A stretch of 64,000 nucleotides of DNA from Molanna angustata (lineage: Eukaryota > Arthropoda > Insecta > Trichoptera > Molannidae). The notes under the pieces are model-generated. The model was not told where the DNA came from and did no database searches. It saw nothing but the letters and a program-made list of their open reading frames with translations. Where the stretch lies: contig OY754989.1 of the NCBI GenBank assembly GCA_963576475.1, forward strand, positions 24,628,031-24,692,030, read 5' to 3'. Positions 377 to 59,336 of this stretch are shown here, piece by piece. The first letter of the stretch is position 1. Every line of letters starts with the position of its first letter. The translations under genes and the position numbers were made by a program.

Positions 377-394
377 TCGATAGAGTCCAGCCTA

Positions 395-502
395 GAGAGG
401 TAATATTAGCGTGAGAAATGAATATAAACAAATTTATTCTCTCCTGGGGATCGAACCCAGGACGCCCGCACAGAAGCTGACCAACTGTGTCACGGCGGTC
501 AG
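395..502 (-). mobile_element. tRNA-derived SINE, family B
   Basis: Read on the minus strand it begins ctgaccgccgtgac and carries a pol III B-box-like GGTTCGATCCC (447-457), followed by a non-tRNA body. A second copy of the same family lies at about 39790-39985. The match to a tRNA is only partial, so this is a SINE head and not a functional tRNA gene. Confidence 0.7.
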
Positions 503-33735: not shown

Positions 33736-34125
33736 ACTACAGTGACTCTTATTACCCGATCGTACTAAATGTGTGAAAATTCAAAATAAAACTTTAATTT
33801 GCTATTAAAATACCGGAACTGTTTTATAAATCGATAATATAAGCTTAAAGACACACAATAATCTACTCTAAGTATTTAAATTTTATGTTTTGATGTACTT
33901 ACCGCTTATTTTGTGCACTTGTAAAATTACATCAAATGAGCGCGAAACTGCTTAGCGGCCTTCCCGTGCAAACGATGGACGCGTACTGAACGGTCGAGCG
34001 AGGGGCCGCGAGTTGTCACTTAACGAGTCTTTATGGACGATATTCGTTTGTTTAGCTACTTTCGTCTATGAACTAGAACGCTGACCACCATTGCCCTCTG
34101 ACTCTCATTGCCCCTTTTTCCCCTA

Positions 34126-34844
34126 CTTTTTGCACGCAAATATCTGTTAATTTAAAAGTTAGAAGTACGTATTTACATGAATAAAATATATTTTCAAGTA
34201 TAACTTAGCTTTTAAGTGAAAAACATGTTGAATATTTTGTCTAATTATAATGTTTAACTTATTTTTAAAGTAAGCGTTTTGTACAAATGTACATATAACC
34301 CCGCCATTTTAATATCTTTTCATACGATATTTAATTTTCCTACCGAATGAATATGTTCTTTAAAATAATATACCTTTGAAATAAATGTGATTATGAAATA
34401 ATAAAATGAAACACAAGACTCTATAGCAAGTTTTATGACATATATTGTAAAAGTCTGTTAATTATTAGTAAAGATATAGGCATAATAAAATTGCATAATT
34501 TGTATATAATATTTGATATTTTGGACAATTATTGATTTTCGTTTTTGTGGCTTCGAACAAACCAATGTAGGTACCTACCTACATATTCAAAAAACGTATC
34601 CGAACCATTTCATATTTCTTACGTGTTCGAATTGGTTACTATGGTTACAAAAAGAATGTAATATTCAAATAATTTTTTTTATGAATCGAATTTATTTAGA
34701 AGACTGTTGTAGGTAGGTACCTACCTAATACTATTTACATACTAATCAACAATATACTGATTTCCTATAGGAAAATTATTTTATTTATTTATTAATAAAC
34801 CGTTTGTCCGATTACAATGAAACTTTGGTGAATTGTCGAGCGTA
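34126..34844. other. AT-rich DNA, nothing recognised
   Basis: No open frame or repeat could be supported. The right flank of the pogo element joins the left flank (aaaagtg|ctttttgc) when the element and one TA are removed. Confidence 0.45.
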
Positions 34845-35610
34845 TGCCCGGGATGGTTTCTGAATTTAAACTTTTTTCTTATTCTTCTTCTTCTTCGTGT
34901 ATTTGATCATTTTACCTATGAAGGGGGAGTATCCTGGGAAAAGAAGGTCCGACTGTCCCTCCATCTCTTCGCAGGTCTTCCAGGACGGGTTCTGCATATA
35001 AACTTTTTTCTTCTTTTTCTTCAACGTGTATTTGGTCATCTTACCAATGAAGATGAACTATCCTGGGAGATGATGGTCCAATTTTCCTTCCATCTCTTCG
35101 CAGGTTTCTGGATTAAAACTTTCTTCATCTTCTTCTTCGTCGTGTATTTGGTCATTTTACCTATGAAGGTGGACTAACCTGGGAGAAGAAGGTCCAATTT
35201 TCCTTCCATCTCTTCGCAGGTTTCTGGATTTAAACTTATTTCTTCTTCTTCTTCTTCATCGTGTATTTTTGGTCATTTTACCTATGAAGTTGGAGAATCC
35301 TGGGAGAAGAAGGTCCAACTGTCCTTCCATCTCTTCGCAGGTCTTCCAAGACGGTTTCTGGATATAAACTTTTTTCTTCTTCTTCTTCATCGTGCATTTG
35401 GTCATTTTACCTATGAAGGTGGAATATCCTGGGAGAAGAAGGTCCAATTTTCCTTCTATATCTTCGCAGGTATCTGGATTTAAACTTTTTTCTTCTTCTT
35501 CTTCGTGTATTTAGTCATTTTACCTATGAAGGTGGAGCATCCTGGGAAAAGAAGGTCCTTTCATCTCTTCGCGGTTCTTCCAGGATGGTTTCTGGATTTA
35601 CACTTTTCTT
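34845..35610 (+). repeat. Tandem array, about 115-125 bp unit
   Basis: Six to seven diverged units each containing 'ttcttcttcttc', 'tttggtcattttacctatga', 'atcctgggagaagaaggtcc' and 'ccatctcttcgcaggt'. Units differ mainly in the length of the TTC tract. Minus-strand open frames over it are repeat artefacts. Confidence 0.9.
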
Positions 35611-35614
35611 AACC

Positions 35615-35760
35615 GACTGAAGGGACGGGATGTAATGAAGGGAAGAGAGGCACTAAAGGGCCTGAAGGGACGGGAGGTATAAAACAGCCTGAAGGGACGG
35701 GAGGTACTGAAGGGCTTGAAGGGACGGGAGGTACTGAAGGGTCTGAAGCGACGGGTCCTG
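35615..35760 (+). repeat. Short G-rich tandem array
   Basis: Four to five units of about 29 bp built on 'gaagggacgggaggtactga' and 'agggcctg'. It is sandwiched between two unrelated longer arrays, and strongly purine-biased on the + strand. Confidence 0.85.
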
Positions 35761-35764
35761 GAGT

Positions 35765-36560
35765 CTAATTCTTTTTCTTCTTAATTTTATGTAGACCTTT
35801 AGGACAGTTTTTATACAAATTATTTCCTATAGTCTAATTCATCTTCTTTTATGTATACATTTGGGTCATTTTTTTATAAAAATTATTTCCTTTAGTCTAA
35901 TTATTCTTCTTCTTCATTTACGTAGACTTTTGGGAGAGTTTTAATACAAACTATTTCCATTAGTCTTATTCATTTTCTTCTTCTTTTTTGTAGACCAAGG
36001 GTGAGTTTTTATACAAAATTTTCCTATAGTTTAATTATTATTCTTTAATATAGACCTTTGAATTAGTTTTTATATTAACTATTTCCTATAGTCTAATTCA
36101 TCTTATTTTATGTAGACCTTTTGGTCAGTTTTTATACAAACTATTTCCAATAGTCTAATTATTCTTCTTTTTCTTTTTTGTAGACCTTTGGGTGAGCTTT
36201 TATACATACTATTTCCTGTTGTCTAATTCATCTTTTTTTATGTAGACCTTACTTATGTATTCAGTTTTTACACAAACTATTTCCTTTAGTCTTTTTCTTC
36301 CTTTTCTTATTTTATGCAGAACTTTGGTGAATTTTATACAAACTATTTCCTATAGATTAATCTTCTTCTTCTTTTATGAAGACCTTTTGGTCAGTTTTTA
36401 TACAATCTATTTCCAATAGTCTAATTCTTCTATTATAGTTATGTATTGTTACTTATTTTATGTAAACCATTGGGATAGATTTTTATATAAACTATTTATT
36501 ATAGTCTTATACTTATTCTGCTCTTTTTTATTTAGACTTTTGGATTAGTTTTAAGTCTAA
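35765..36560 (+). repeat. Tandem array, about 60-70 bp unit
   Basis: About twelve diverged units with 'ttttatgtagacctttgg', 'cagtttttatacaaactatt' and 'tcctatagtctaattcttct'. Confidence 0.9.
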
Positions 36561-36564
36561 TAGT

Positions 36565-37340
36565 CTATTGTGAAGAAATATTATTAACGATATGCACACT
36601 TGATGAAAATACATATGTAAAAATGAATGGGATGTGACGATTGTAACCTGCACTAGAATATTTTCAATACTTTTGTTTAATAAAATTTAAACCATTTATA
36701 TAATCCTATTTGTAATAATATTCAACACCTACATATTTGATTTAGTTGACAATATTTAAAGAATGGGGGTTGTGGCCATTACTGAACTCTTCACAACGTT
36801 TATATTCAAATTAAAAACTATTTACCATAGTTTAAGTCTTCTTCTTCTTCGTTAATGTAGACTTTTGTGTCAATTTTAAGTCTATTAGTCTAATTGTGCA
36901 AAAATATAATGCACCCTTGATGAAAAAATATAAAAACGAATGGGATGTGACCAACGCTAGATCTTTTCGGTACATGATTTAATCAAATTTTAAACACATT
37001 CCAACATTACTAAATTTTCAATAGGTACATATTACAATTTGTTTTCGATGATAATATTTAAAAATGGGGGTTGTGGCCAAACCAATCTCTTTACAACGTT
37101 GATAAACAGTCATATATTTAAAACCATTTCAGAATTCATGTGCAGAAATTGTATATTATACTTCATTCACACTTTATAGCAATATATAAAAAAGAATGGG
37201 TTGTGGCCATCACTTGAACATTTTACAATGCTTAAACTCAATCAAATTTCAAACCACTTTTCATAGACCGATATTGAAAAATAATTGGGTGACAATATTA
37301 TAAAAAACGATTGCTTATTTCTTCACAATTTTACATTCTT
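36565..37340 (+). repeat. Long-unit degenerate repeat related to family A
   Basis: Three to four long units with 'gaatgggatgtgacc', 'ggggttgtggccatta' and '...ctcttcacaacg'. The wording resembles the left end of family A (gggttgtggtcaacgctaa at 7548). Separate 'gtagacttttgtgtcaat' stretches show mixing with the preceding array. Confidence 0.65.
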
Positions 37341-37499
37341 GGCCAACGGCGGGACATAAAAGCTAGTAATTAAATAAAATTAGATTAATTGAAACCATCC
37401 CGTTTCTGCAAATTCCACGCAGTACGCATACTCACCTATGTGTATATAAATAAATGTATAAAATATTGTTCAGATAAATTTTCTAAGACATAGATATTT

Positions 37500-38891: not shown

Positions 38892-39013
38892 TACATACAT
38901 ACATACATACCATCACGCCGTTTCCCTATTTGGGGTAGGCAGAGAGATCCGAACGCCAGACTCTTCTATCTTGACATACCTGTTTTGCCTCATTTACATT
39001 CATACATCGCGTC

Positions 39014-39226
39014 CGGAATGGGACACTTGACTGCGGCCACTTGGGTGCGGGACACTTGGGTGCGGGACACTTGGGTGCGGGACACTTGGCTGCGAGACAC
39101 TTGGCTGCGGGGGACATTTGGCTGCGGGACACTTGGGTGCGACGGACACTTGGGTGCGAGCCCACTTGGTTGCGAGTCCATTTGGTCGCGACGGACACTT
39201 GGGTGCGAGCCCACTTGGTCGCGAAA
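39014..39226 (+). repeat. Minisatellite in the left Foldback arm
   Basis: Thirteen or so units of 14-18 bp based on gggacacttgggtgc, with variants cttggctgc, catttggctgc and catttggtcgc. Open frames in several phases are repeat artefacts. Confidence 0.9.
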
Positions 39227-39654
39227 TCAAAAATATTTTTTTCTGCTTAGGAATGAAATATTTCGTACTGATTTTTGTAATGCTCTTTATATTTATTTAT
39301 TTATTTTTATTTAAAGAACCACTTACAGCTAAAAAGTTACTATACATCGTTGTTTCATCAAATAAGGGCAAGCTACTACAAAACTGGTCAGCCAATTACA
39401 AGTGCCACATCCTGCATTAAATATCGGCCTACAAATCTATAAGAAAAGGAATATCAAAAAAGAATCTATATGAAAATAAAAAGATACAACAGAAACTATA
39501 ATGTATATTATTTTTATAAAATATACAGTTTTGTTCTTCTCAGTAAATATATTTTTTGTAAATATATCAGTAAATATATTTATATCAGTAAATCAGTAAA
39601 TATATATCAGTAAATATATTTTTATATTTTTTGTTTTGTCGCCTATACACAATA

Positions 39655-40150
39655 TGTTAGAAGACTTAATAGTTTGATACTTAATCTCTAAACATACATA
39701 CATACCATCATGCTGTTTTCATATTCCGGGTAGGAAAAAAGGGACTAACCTCCATACTATCCTATCTTGACATACACAATAATAATAAACACTTCCTTGC
39801 ACCATGCGCAAGTGGCGAGTTTATTGCCGTATGGCAATTTCTTCCAACTAACCAGTGTTTCCAGCCCAGAGAAGCAATATTTGCGTGAGAAATGAATTTA
39901 AATATATTTCTCCTCTACTGGGTATCGAACCCAGGACGCCCGCACAGAAACCGAACGGCTTACCAACAGTGCCACGGCGGTCGGCATACATACCTACATG
40001 TTTTGTGTAGAAAACAAAATATCTTAAAAAAATTCAATAATTTCGATTTATTGGTTTATAGTTTGGTACTTACTTATTCTTCAACTATACAAGTATACAT
40101 ACTATCGCTATCGACAGTTGGATCTCATGTGTTACATGCAACTAGTGTGT
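39655..40150 (-). repeat. Repeat family Y, interrupted by SINE B
   Basis: 'gatacttaatctctaaacat' and 'taccatcatgctgttttcat' (left) and 'atcgctatcgacagttggat' (right) belong to one family Y copy split by the SINE at about 39775-39988. It lies wholly within the Foldback-like element. Confidence 0.75.
39775..39988 (-). mobile_element. tRNA-derived SINE, family B
   Basis: The minus-strand head gccgaccgccgtggcact (rc of 39971-39988) and B-box-like GGTTCGATACCC precede a body with 'aaatatatttaaattcattt' and 'gccatacggcaataaactcg'. The copy at 395-502 is shorter. A short catac-like direct repeat flanks the insertion but lies in a repetitive context. Confidence 0.7.
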
Positions 40151-40440
40151 ATGAAAAATTCTCATATTTTTATAGTGTAAAAAATAATTTGGCTTAATAA
40201 CCTTGTTTTTACTTTACAATTTTCAACATAAGTACAAATTGGAAGAAATTGCCACTAGGCAATAAGCCCGCCAGTGTACTAATTATAATTTCAAGAAGAT
40301 TTAATAAATAAATAATTTTTTTATATTTTTAATGTCTGTATATAGGTACCTACTTGTATATCAACTACTTATATGATAAAGAACATTACAAAAATCAGCA
40401 CGAAAAACTTCAGCCCTAGGCAGAAAAAAAATATTTTTGA

Positions 40441-40654
40441 ATTCGCGACCAAGTGGGCTCACACCCAAGTGTCCGTCGCGACCAAATGGACTCGCAACCA
40501 AGTGGGCTCGCACCCAAGTGGGCTCGCACCCAAGTGTCCGTCGCACCCAAGTGTCCCGCAGCCAAATGTCCGCCGCAGCCAAGTGTCTCGCAGCCAAGTG
40601 TCCCGCACCCAAGTGTCCCGCACCCAAGTGCCCGCAGCCAAGTGTCCTAGACCG
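40441..40654 (-). repeat. Minisatellite in the right Foldback arm
   Basis: Reverse complement of the array at 39014-39226 (cacccaagtgtcccg units), with one extra gggctcgcacccaagt unit and different order of variants. The arms have therefore exchanged or drifted units since they formed. Confidence 0.9.
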
Positions 40655-41299
40655 CATCGCGTCATACATGCTCTCCTATTGTTCTGACTTCGTATGTTCC
40701 CCTCTTTCAAAATCTCATTTATATGATCATGCCAGCTCTTTCTAGGTCGACCCTTACATCTCATTCCACTCTTTTCAGCCTTGTATACTTTCTTTGTCAG
40801 TCGTTCATCGTTCATTCTCTCTACATGTCCGAACCAACGCAAAGCATTTATCTTCATTCTACTCAAAATATCCCTTTCAATCTTACATTCTCTTCTGATA
40901 TCTTGATTCCTTATCCTATCATAAATTGTTTTACCACACATTCGTCTTAGGGACCTCATTTCCACAGCGTTAATTTTACTTTCATGCTTCTTCTGCCATG
41001 CCCATGTCTCACTTGCATACATTATGGTGGAACGACAATAGCGTTGTGCACAGCGAGTTTTGCTGGCCTTGAAATAATTGGGTCAGCCATTATTGTTCTT
41101 AATGCACCATTTACTCTATTTGCTGCCGTTACCCTTCTTTCTATATCCTTTTCCAATTTTCCATCACGCTGAAACATACTTCCTAGATACACATATTCAT
41201 CCACTTGTTCTAGTAGTTCATTATTAAATCGTATCTCGCATATTGTTCGTCTTTCGCTCTTCTCAAATACCATTACTTTAGACTTCAAGAATATATCAA

Positions 41300-41745
41300 G
41301 TGATAGTTAAAGTTATACATACATTTTTAACAAATGATAACAAAATTAAAGGATCATACCTAGAACAAACAAGGAACAGTACAAAGAAGATTATATTACA
41401 GGATCATAACATGGGATTATAACGTATTTAAGGCTTAACGAAATAGGTGTATTTGCGATCTTTAGGGTGTTACATATAATATGTATATCTAGAGTGTGGA
41501 ATTTTGAGTTATGTTATCAGTGCAAAGTTGGTGCTTTATCGCAATTTTGAACGAGACTATATAGATATTGAGTATGAAAGAACTCAATGTTATTGAGCAG
41601 GTTGTTGTTGAAATTGGAGGTGGCCCGGTTAGTAAAAAAGTTTTTCCTAAGATTAGTTTTACAGTGTGAAATAGAAAAAGTTGGTTAGAAAAAGTATGAA
41701 TGTCGGTAAATATAAGATATTGGTATTCGATAAAAAGAAAGTATA
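41300..41745 (-). other. Unassigned repeat-like DNA
   Basis: A minus-strand frame over about 41640-41510 reads NLRKNFFTNRATSNFNNNLL... and stops soon after. It may be the end of another LINE, but I could not place it. Confidence 0.35.
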
Positions 41746-59229: not shown

Positions 59230-59336
59230 ACAACTGTCCCCGCGGTCAATTGTCCTCAAGGCCAACTGTCCCCAAGGTCAATTGTCCGTGCGGTAAATTG
59301 TCCTCACGGTCAACTGTCCACGGTTAACTATCCGGG
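59230..59336 (+). repeat. 16-bp short tandem array
   Basis: About six units of 'caactgtccccgcggt' type, alternating caactgtcc and caattgtcc. It starts inside the end of a reversed family Y fragment (59190-59228) and is followed by 'aatcaatattttttcgtgaa', a layout like that of the Foldback arm at 39014-39250 but with a different unit. Confidence 0.85.

What the first reader, a model, noticed from the sequence alone, without database searches (positions are those of the whole stretch)
39005..40663. Foldback-like element with minisatellite inverted arms and a 9-bp target duplication
Seen directly: inverted arms of about 279 bp, each mainly an array of gggacacttgggtgc-type units, bracket a 1.1-kb interior. 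The exact 9-mer CATCGCGTC lies on both sides. The target is an RTE reading frame that becomes continuous again (ACMTR/CMNVNEAK) when the insert and one 9-mer are removed. Known: Drosophila FB elements have long inverted ends made of short tandem units and 9-bp duplications. Inference: a similar structural class exists here, and it trapped older repeats (family Y, SINE B) as its loop. Unit order differs between arms, so the arrays evolve after insertion.
Basis: partly seen in the sequence, partly recalled or inferred. Interest (0 to 1): 0.85.

Follow-up and report, generated by a model that had tools for sequence, protein, structure and literature searches.

The report
Non-autonomous foldback MULE-type transposon
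The feature is a real, young, high-copy jumping-DNA family whose ends are ladders of a short repeated word, built like known mosquito and nematode transposons; it is a good new example of a known kind, and its enzyme was not found.

Summary
Bases 39014-40654 are a transposon flanked by the exact 9-bp duplication CATCGCGTC, inside an RTE-type retrotransposon whose uninterrupted site is seen in 8 other copies in the window. Its ends recur genome-wide: 696 exact 23-mer end matches, control 0. Of 20 both-ended copies examined first, 19 have an exact 9-bp duplication; one reads as 10 bp. Each arm is a 7-bp side-specific tip, GGA, 9-15 (mostly 12-13) copies of a 12-bp core (CACTTGGNTGCG) with 2-5-bp spacers, then an AT-rich inner stem. 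This is the architecture printed for Tm1 and Muta1, foldback-type Mutator-like elements. The 30 convergent pairs among the first 100 listed ends all join a left-type with a right-type tip. No partner transposase was found: 0 of 82 MULE matches lie within 12 kb of 379 of 438 exact right ends. New member of a known kind; mechanism inferred from anatomy.

The parts
39005..39013 (+). left target-site duplication CATCGCGTC
39014..39023 (+). left tip: 7-bp side-specific motif CGGAATG followed by GGA
39024..39223 (+). left ladder: 13 copies of the 12-bp core CACTTGGNTGCG-type with 2-5-bp spacers
39224..39290 (+). left inner stem, AT-rich, paired with the right inner stem
   Evidence: (I5, 84% over 62 nt)
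39291..40375 (.). loop (interior); shared with nine other 1.6-kb copies, the ten being 0.17-0.94% from their majority (235 nt at each end left out of the count)
39644..39776 (.). repeat Y, first part, with an RTE-like 3' tail; also present elsewhere in the window
39860..39982 (.). SINE-like repeat inside Y (82% to window 386-500)
39985..40146 (.). repeat Y, second part
40376..40443 (-). right inner stem
40444..40644 (-). right ladder: 13 core units on the minus strand, same series of unit variants as the left ladder
40645..40654 (-). right tip: CGGTCTA then GGA, read on the minus strand
40655..40663 (+). right target-site duplication CATCGCGTC
38897..39004 (-). target: 3' end of an RTE-type retrotransposon, left side of the insertion
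40664..41300 (-). target: same RTE copy continuing to the right

Best explanation
This is a non-autonomous cut-and-paste DNA transposon of the foldback type, most likely moved by a Mutator-like (MULE) transposase supplied in trans. The transposase would bind the ladder of 12-bp cores in each arm, cut at the side-specific 7-bp tips, and join the element to a target cut with a 9-bp stagger, giving the duplication. One founder, already carrying repeat Y and a SINE-like repeat in its loop, was amplified recently; the window copy is one of those copies and landed in an older RTE. Shown: termini, ladders, 9-bp duplications, empty sites, copy number, low divergence and shared loop. Inferred: MULE enzyme, ladder as binding sites, movement in trans.
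For: Exact 9-bp duplications in 19 of 20 both-ended copies, the other reading as 10 bp; later L050 exact and L049 8 of 9. Empty site in 8 RTE paralogues. 696 exact end matches against 0 control; 438 matches of the 17-base right end with a base before it (96+116+143+83). 30 of 30 convergent end pairs are left-type with right-type, one of them with a one-base variant of the left tip. Loop of the 1.6-kb class 0.17-0.94% from majority in 10 copies, of the 2.0-kb class 0.26-0.81% in 6. Architecture equals the printed text of Tm1 (mostly 9-bp duplication, asymmetric 7-bp tips one of which begins CGG, then GGA, then 13-15-bp tandem units) and Muta1 (12-bp repeats with 3-4-bp spacers, 8-9-bp duplication, active in yeast). 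MULE domains, many in long open frames, are present in this genome (82 matches), including three uninterrupted 466-aa FLYWCH+MULE frames.
Against: No copy encoding a MULE transposase was found. 0 of 82 MULE matches lie within 12 kb of 379 right ends (296, nearest 18.4 kb; 83, nearest 243 kb). Of all 438, 59 were not in these tests; copies with a changed right end were not tested at all. At 20 MULE loci of 3.3-4.2 kb (12 of them from one top-scoring group) no ladder of this type was seen; one fuzzy unit match in L046 and lone CACTTGG words in L043, L044, L047 are taken as chance. The long copies hold other things: a LINE in L019, a reverse transcriptase frame in the slice L051 of a 5.4-kb copy, RTE pieces in L020 and L021, a TA-flanked nested element in L021, a TTAA-flanked piggyBac in L050, other repeats in L012 and L049; about 1.9 kb of L020 was not identified. 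The 9-bp duplication is typical of MULEs but does not prove the enzyme.
Confidence: 0.8

Rival explanations
1. It is a member of the Rehavkus / FB-NOF branch rather than of the Tm1/Muta1 (Phantom-type) branch; the mechanism would be the same in outline, with a PHD-finger transposase.
For: Rehavkus is described with 9-bp duplications, 26-400-bp inverted ends, a minisatellite and a PHD finger, in arthropods and annelids (PMC6446971 passages).
Against: The printed Rehavkus minisatellite lies before the 3' inverted repeat; here both arms are ladders. The one frame that looked PHD-like to my eye (L021; Pfam names no PHD finger in it) sits in what reads, by eye, as a TA-flanked element with its own inverted ends nested in an RTE piece, so I take it as a passenger.
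Confidence: 0.12
2. A foldback element of a different superfamily, moved by a P-, hAT- or other transposase, that reached the same form independently, as Galileo did.
For: Foldback form arises in unrelated superfamilies: Galileo is a P element (passages of PMC4079207 and PMC3169594).
Against: Exact 9-bp duplications in 20 of 22 copies, where P and hAT elements give 8 bp or less (recalled). The tip layout matches Tm1 in detail.
Confidence: 0.06
3. Two minisatellite arrays that arose independently by slippage in opposite orientation beside a 9-mer, not a transposon.
For: Tandem arrays are common in this window: 61 rows from Tandem Repeats Finder, overlapping rows included.
Against: Same ends, same unit order and target duplications at many loci, empty sites in paralogues, 0 control matches.
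Confidence: 0.01

Closest known systems
Tm1 (root-knot nematodes; Mutator/Foldback, Phantom-type transposase; PMC3169594, passages seen)
   Same: Mostly 9-bp duplications (8-10 bp in 45 of 53 there); asymmetric 7-bp tips, one beginning CGG; GGA next; then 13-15-bp tandem units; arms of one element about 93% alike (here left-right 95.3%); mostly non-coding copies
   Different: Unit sequence unrelated by eye; Tm1 has a purine-rich inner motif, here the inner stem is AT-rich; a coding copy is known there and none was found here
Muta1 and Muta5 (Aedes aegypti MULEs; Muta1 called 'type2 Foldback'; PMC5225508, passages seen)
   Same: 8-9-bp duplications; short tip followed by a ladder of 12-bp units with 3-4-bp spacers (Muta1) or 15-bp units (Muta5); many non-autonomous derivatives with other loops and variable unit number
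   Different: Autonomous copies known and, for Muta1, transposition shown in yeast; Muta1 tip is a 10-bp imperfect palindrome; its ladder has 9 units against 9-15 here
Tetris (Drosophila virilis foldback; PMC4079207, passages seen)
   Same: Foldback form, 8-10-bp duplications, no coding copy found, assigned to Mutator by its authors on duplication length
   Different: About 220-bp units; three structurally complete copies against hundreds of ends here
Drosophila FB / FB-NOF
   Different: No sequence comparison was made; kinship untested
Rehavkus (PMC6446971, passages seen)
   Same: 9-bp duplication, minisatellite, arthropod hosts
   Different: Minisatellite printed as lying before the 3' inverted repeat; PHD-finger transposase, none found in these copies

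Membership tests
Foldback-type MULE (Tm1/Muta1 kind) | 8-10-bp target duplication, mostly 9 bp | tested here: met
   19 of 20 exact 9 bp, one 10 bp; L050 exact, L049 8 of 9
Foldback-type MULE (Tm1/Muta1 kind) | Short terminal motif, then subterminal ladder of 12-15-bp tandem units in both arms | tested here: met
   7-bp tip + GGA + 12-bp cores with 2-5-bp spacers; 12-15 units left, 9-13 right in 20 copies
Foldback-type MULE (Tm1/Muta1 kind) | Asymmetric, side-specific tips (Tm1) | tested here: met
   30 of 30 convergent pairs among the first 100 listed ends join a left-type with a right-type tip
Foldback-type MULE (Tm1/Muta1 kind) | A copy of the family encodes a MULE transposase | tested here: inconclusive
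   0 of 82 MULE matches within 12 kb of 379 of 438 exact right ends; no ladder at 20 MULE loci; one distant relative at C22:27583613 not inspected
Drosophila FB / FB-NOF | Sequence kinship with FB ends or the NOF frame | not tested
   no FB sequence was compared
Drosophila FB / FB-NOF | Long inverted ends of short tandem units, 9-bp duplication (recalled) | tested here: met
Rehavkus | PHD-finger transposase | tested here: inconclusive
   none of the family's own found; the frame in L021 that looks PHD-like by eye is in a nested element and Pfam names no PHD finger in it
Rehavkus | Minisatellite before the 3' inverted repeat (as printed) | tested here: not met
   here the minisatellite makes up both arms
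Galileo / P superfamily foldback | 7-bp duplication (recalled) | tested here: not met
   9-bp duplications
Galileo / P superfamily foldback | P-type transposase | not tested
   no search for P-type transposase was made

The most novel reading that the evidence does not exclude
A large, young foldback family (438 exact right ends) persists with no coding copy found so far, its two tips differ in sequence and are always paired one of each in the pairs seen, and its two ladders keep the same series of unit variants. That suggests the ladder and the left/right tips are read as an address by a transposase borrowed from a different MULE family, or by an enzyme now lost from this genome.
Probability: 0.15. 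Interest if true: 0.6.

Novelty: new member of a known kind. Interest (0 to 1): 0.4.

Why it matters
It adds a well-documented, recently amplified foldback family with very clean anatomy: hundreds of matching ends, and intact duplications in nearly every copy examined. Such a set shows directly how ladder units are gained and lost, how nested elements become passengers (piggyBac, LINE, RTE, SINE-like), and that the two tips are not interchangeable in the pairs seen. The side-specific pairing (30 of 30) is a testable constraint on how foldback MULE ends are recognised.

Tried and rejected
Rejected: independent minisatellites (duplications, empty sites, copy number); post-insertion reordering of the arrays; loop trapped at this site; the PHD-like frame (by eye) in L021 as the element's own enzyme (it lies in what reads by eye as a TA-flanked nested element with its own inverted ends); the 587-aa piggyBac frame in L050 as the partner (TTAA-flanked with perfect 12-bp inverted ends).

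Led nowhere: exact ladder pattern in viral contigs and genome contigs, 0 matches each; 20 MULE loci without this ladder; tblastn of 20 MULE-locus frames against the copies held gave no hit at E 0.01; paper PMC2927773 (Phantom) not held. I saw only search listings and 'find' passages of PMC6446971, PMC13359780, PMC4079207, PMC3169594 and PMC5225508, never whole texts. The six paper searches listed no report that I recognised as this family, but the unit itself cannot be searched for, so absence from print is not shown. That the host is a moth or butterfly is recalled from the look of the RTE tail and was not tested. Copies were chosen by similarity to this copy's left arm (20 of the 40 scored places fetched), so they lean towards its close kin; L014 showed no right end in the fetched stretch and was dropped from the 20. 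The pairing count used adjacent rows of an exact pattern; 40 of the 100 listed ends had no partner in it.

Full report
What is there. The window copy runs from 39014 to 40654 (1641 bp) between two exact copies of CATCGCGTC. It sits in the 3' part of an RTE-type retrotransposon on the minus strand. Joining the flanks in a script and aligning them to the window gives 8 other RTE copies that run through the junction, with at least 20 bases on each side, without an insert; the joined reading frame is open across it. Those alignments are 72-82% identical, so the target family is much older than the insert family.

The arms. Each arm has four parts: a 7-bp tip that depends on the side (CGGAATG left, CGGTCTA right, both read inwards), then GGA, then a ladder of a 12-bp core, CACTTGGNTGCG-like, separated by 2-5-bp spacers, then an AT-rich inner stem. 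In 20 copies the left ladder has 12-15 units and the right 9-13. In the 8 copies printed the series of unit variants is the same in both arms, apart from units gained or lost (L017, L018 and L025 differ most). Left arms of different copies are on average 99.0% alike, right arms 98.1%, left to right within a copy 95.3%, gaps left out. So the left-right difference is inherited, while whole units come and go between copies. The window copy's extra left unit is shared with other 13-unit copies; its extra right unit is not in the other 7 right arms printed, though L017 and L018 have a similar extra unit at that place with another spacer.

The family. The 296-bp arm query gave 40 scored matches out of 1362 candidates. 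A 23-base end pattern occurs 696 times exactly, its reversed control never. The 17-base right end CGGTCTAGGACACTTGG occurs 438 times (96, 116, 143 and 83 by preceding base). Of 20 loci fetched, 19 have both ends in the fetched stretch; with the window copy that makes 20. Nineteen have an exact 9-bp duplication and L027 has a 10-bp one. Two further copies fetched later: L050 exact, L049 8 of 9. Among the first 100 listed ends, 30 convergent adjacent pairs lie within 12 kb, 644-9422 bp long; all 30 join a left-type with a right-type tip (one left tip is a one-base variant), none left-left or right-right, and 40 ends were unpaired in that exact pattern. The tips are thus distinct ends and the arms are not simple mirror images.

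The loop. Ten copies of the 1.6-kb class (window included) share the loop at 0.17-0.94% substitutions from their majority (pairwise 0.43-1.55%), and six of a 2.0-kb class share theirs at 0.26-0.81% (pairwise 0.58-1.49%). The loop of the window copy holds repeat Y with an RTE-like tail and a SINE-like repeat inside it. These were in the founder before amplification. Longer copies hold further insertions: a LINE in L019 (reverse transcriptase and endonuclease domains), a reverse transcriptase frame in the slice that was read of a 5.4-kb copy (L051), RTE pieces in L020 and L021 and, in L021, an element that by eye is TA-flanked with inverted ends, a piggyBac frame between TTAA sites in L050, other repeats in L012 and L049. 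About 1.9 kb of L020 (878-2782) was not identified. L050 without its piggyBac would be about 0.7 kb, close to the eight 0.64-0.81-kb pairs; by eye its centre is itself nearly palindromic.

The enzyme. PF10551 (MULE) has 82 matches in this genome, many with long open frames. None of 20 such loci inspected carries this ladder (12 of the 20 belong to one top-scoring group; one fuzzy unit match in L046 and lone 7-base words in L043, L044 and L047 are taken as chance). Two carry other tandem repeats near the frame (L042 18-bp units, L048 39-bp units with inverted copies). None of the 82 lies within 12 kb of the 379 right ends put to the test (296, 83) of 438; one more right end (C22:25570727) is by eye 1.8 Mb from the nearest; 58 were not placed. 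A FLYWCH+MULE frame of 466 aa occurs uninterrupted three times; L046, the one inspected, holds AT-rich tandem repeats. The partner is therefore not identified.

What it works like. The printed description of Tm1 is nearly a description of this element: mostly 9-bp duplications, asymmetric 7-bp tips, GGA, then tandem units of about 14 bp, inside a Phantom-type MULE family. Muta1 has 12-bp units with 3-4-bp spacers, 8-9-bp duplications, over 300 putative non-autonomous derivatives, and transposes in yeast. I therefore take it as a non-autonomous foldback MULE. Its membership rests on anatomy; the coding test is open. FB of Drosophila looks alike, but no sequence was compared.

Verdict.

Noticed in passing
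window 59231-59319: A second short array (CAACTGTCCCCACGGT-type 16-bp units) next to a piece of repeat Y and followed by an AT-rich stretch (GGGAATCAATATTTTTTCGTG) that by eye resembles the inner stem of this element; possibly one arm of another foldback family.
   Followed up: partly
window 34124-37393: Large tandem-repeat region (129-bp, 68-bp and 27-bp periods) whose sequence is also inside a foldback copy at another locus (L049 511-3318; main pieces 84.6% and 89.1% identical).
   Followed up: no
L042 1689-4062: MULE transposase frame (563 aa from its first start codon) followed by an 18-bp minisatellite of about 600 bp; the window has units that look similar by eye at 35615-35755.
   Followed up: partly
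L050 341-3592: Open 587-aa piggyBac transposase frame between TTAA sites with perfect 12-bp inverted ends, nested in a foldback copy; L049 holds a short piece that by eye has the same ends.
   Followed up: partly
G000 C12:20984750-22090825: Ten weak matches (27-34 bits) to the N-terminal, zinc-finger part of the FLYWCH+MULE protein within about 1.1 Mb, perhaps a gene cluster with that finger.
   Followed up: no
G000 C4:782307-793089: Two copies of the element in the same orientation 9.2 kb apart, perhaps a tandem segmental duplication.
   Followed up: no
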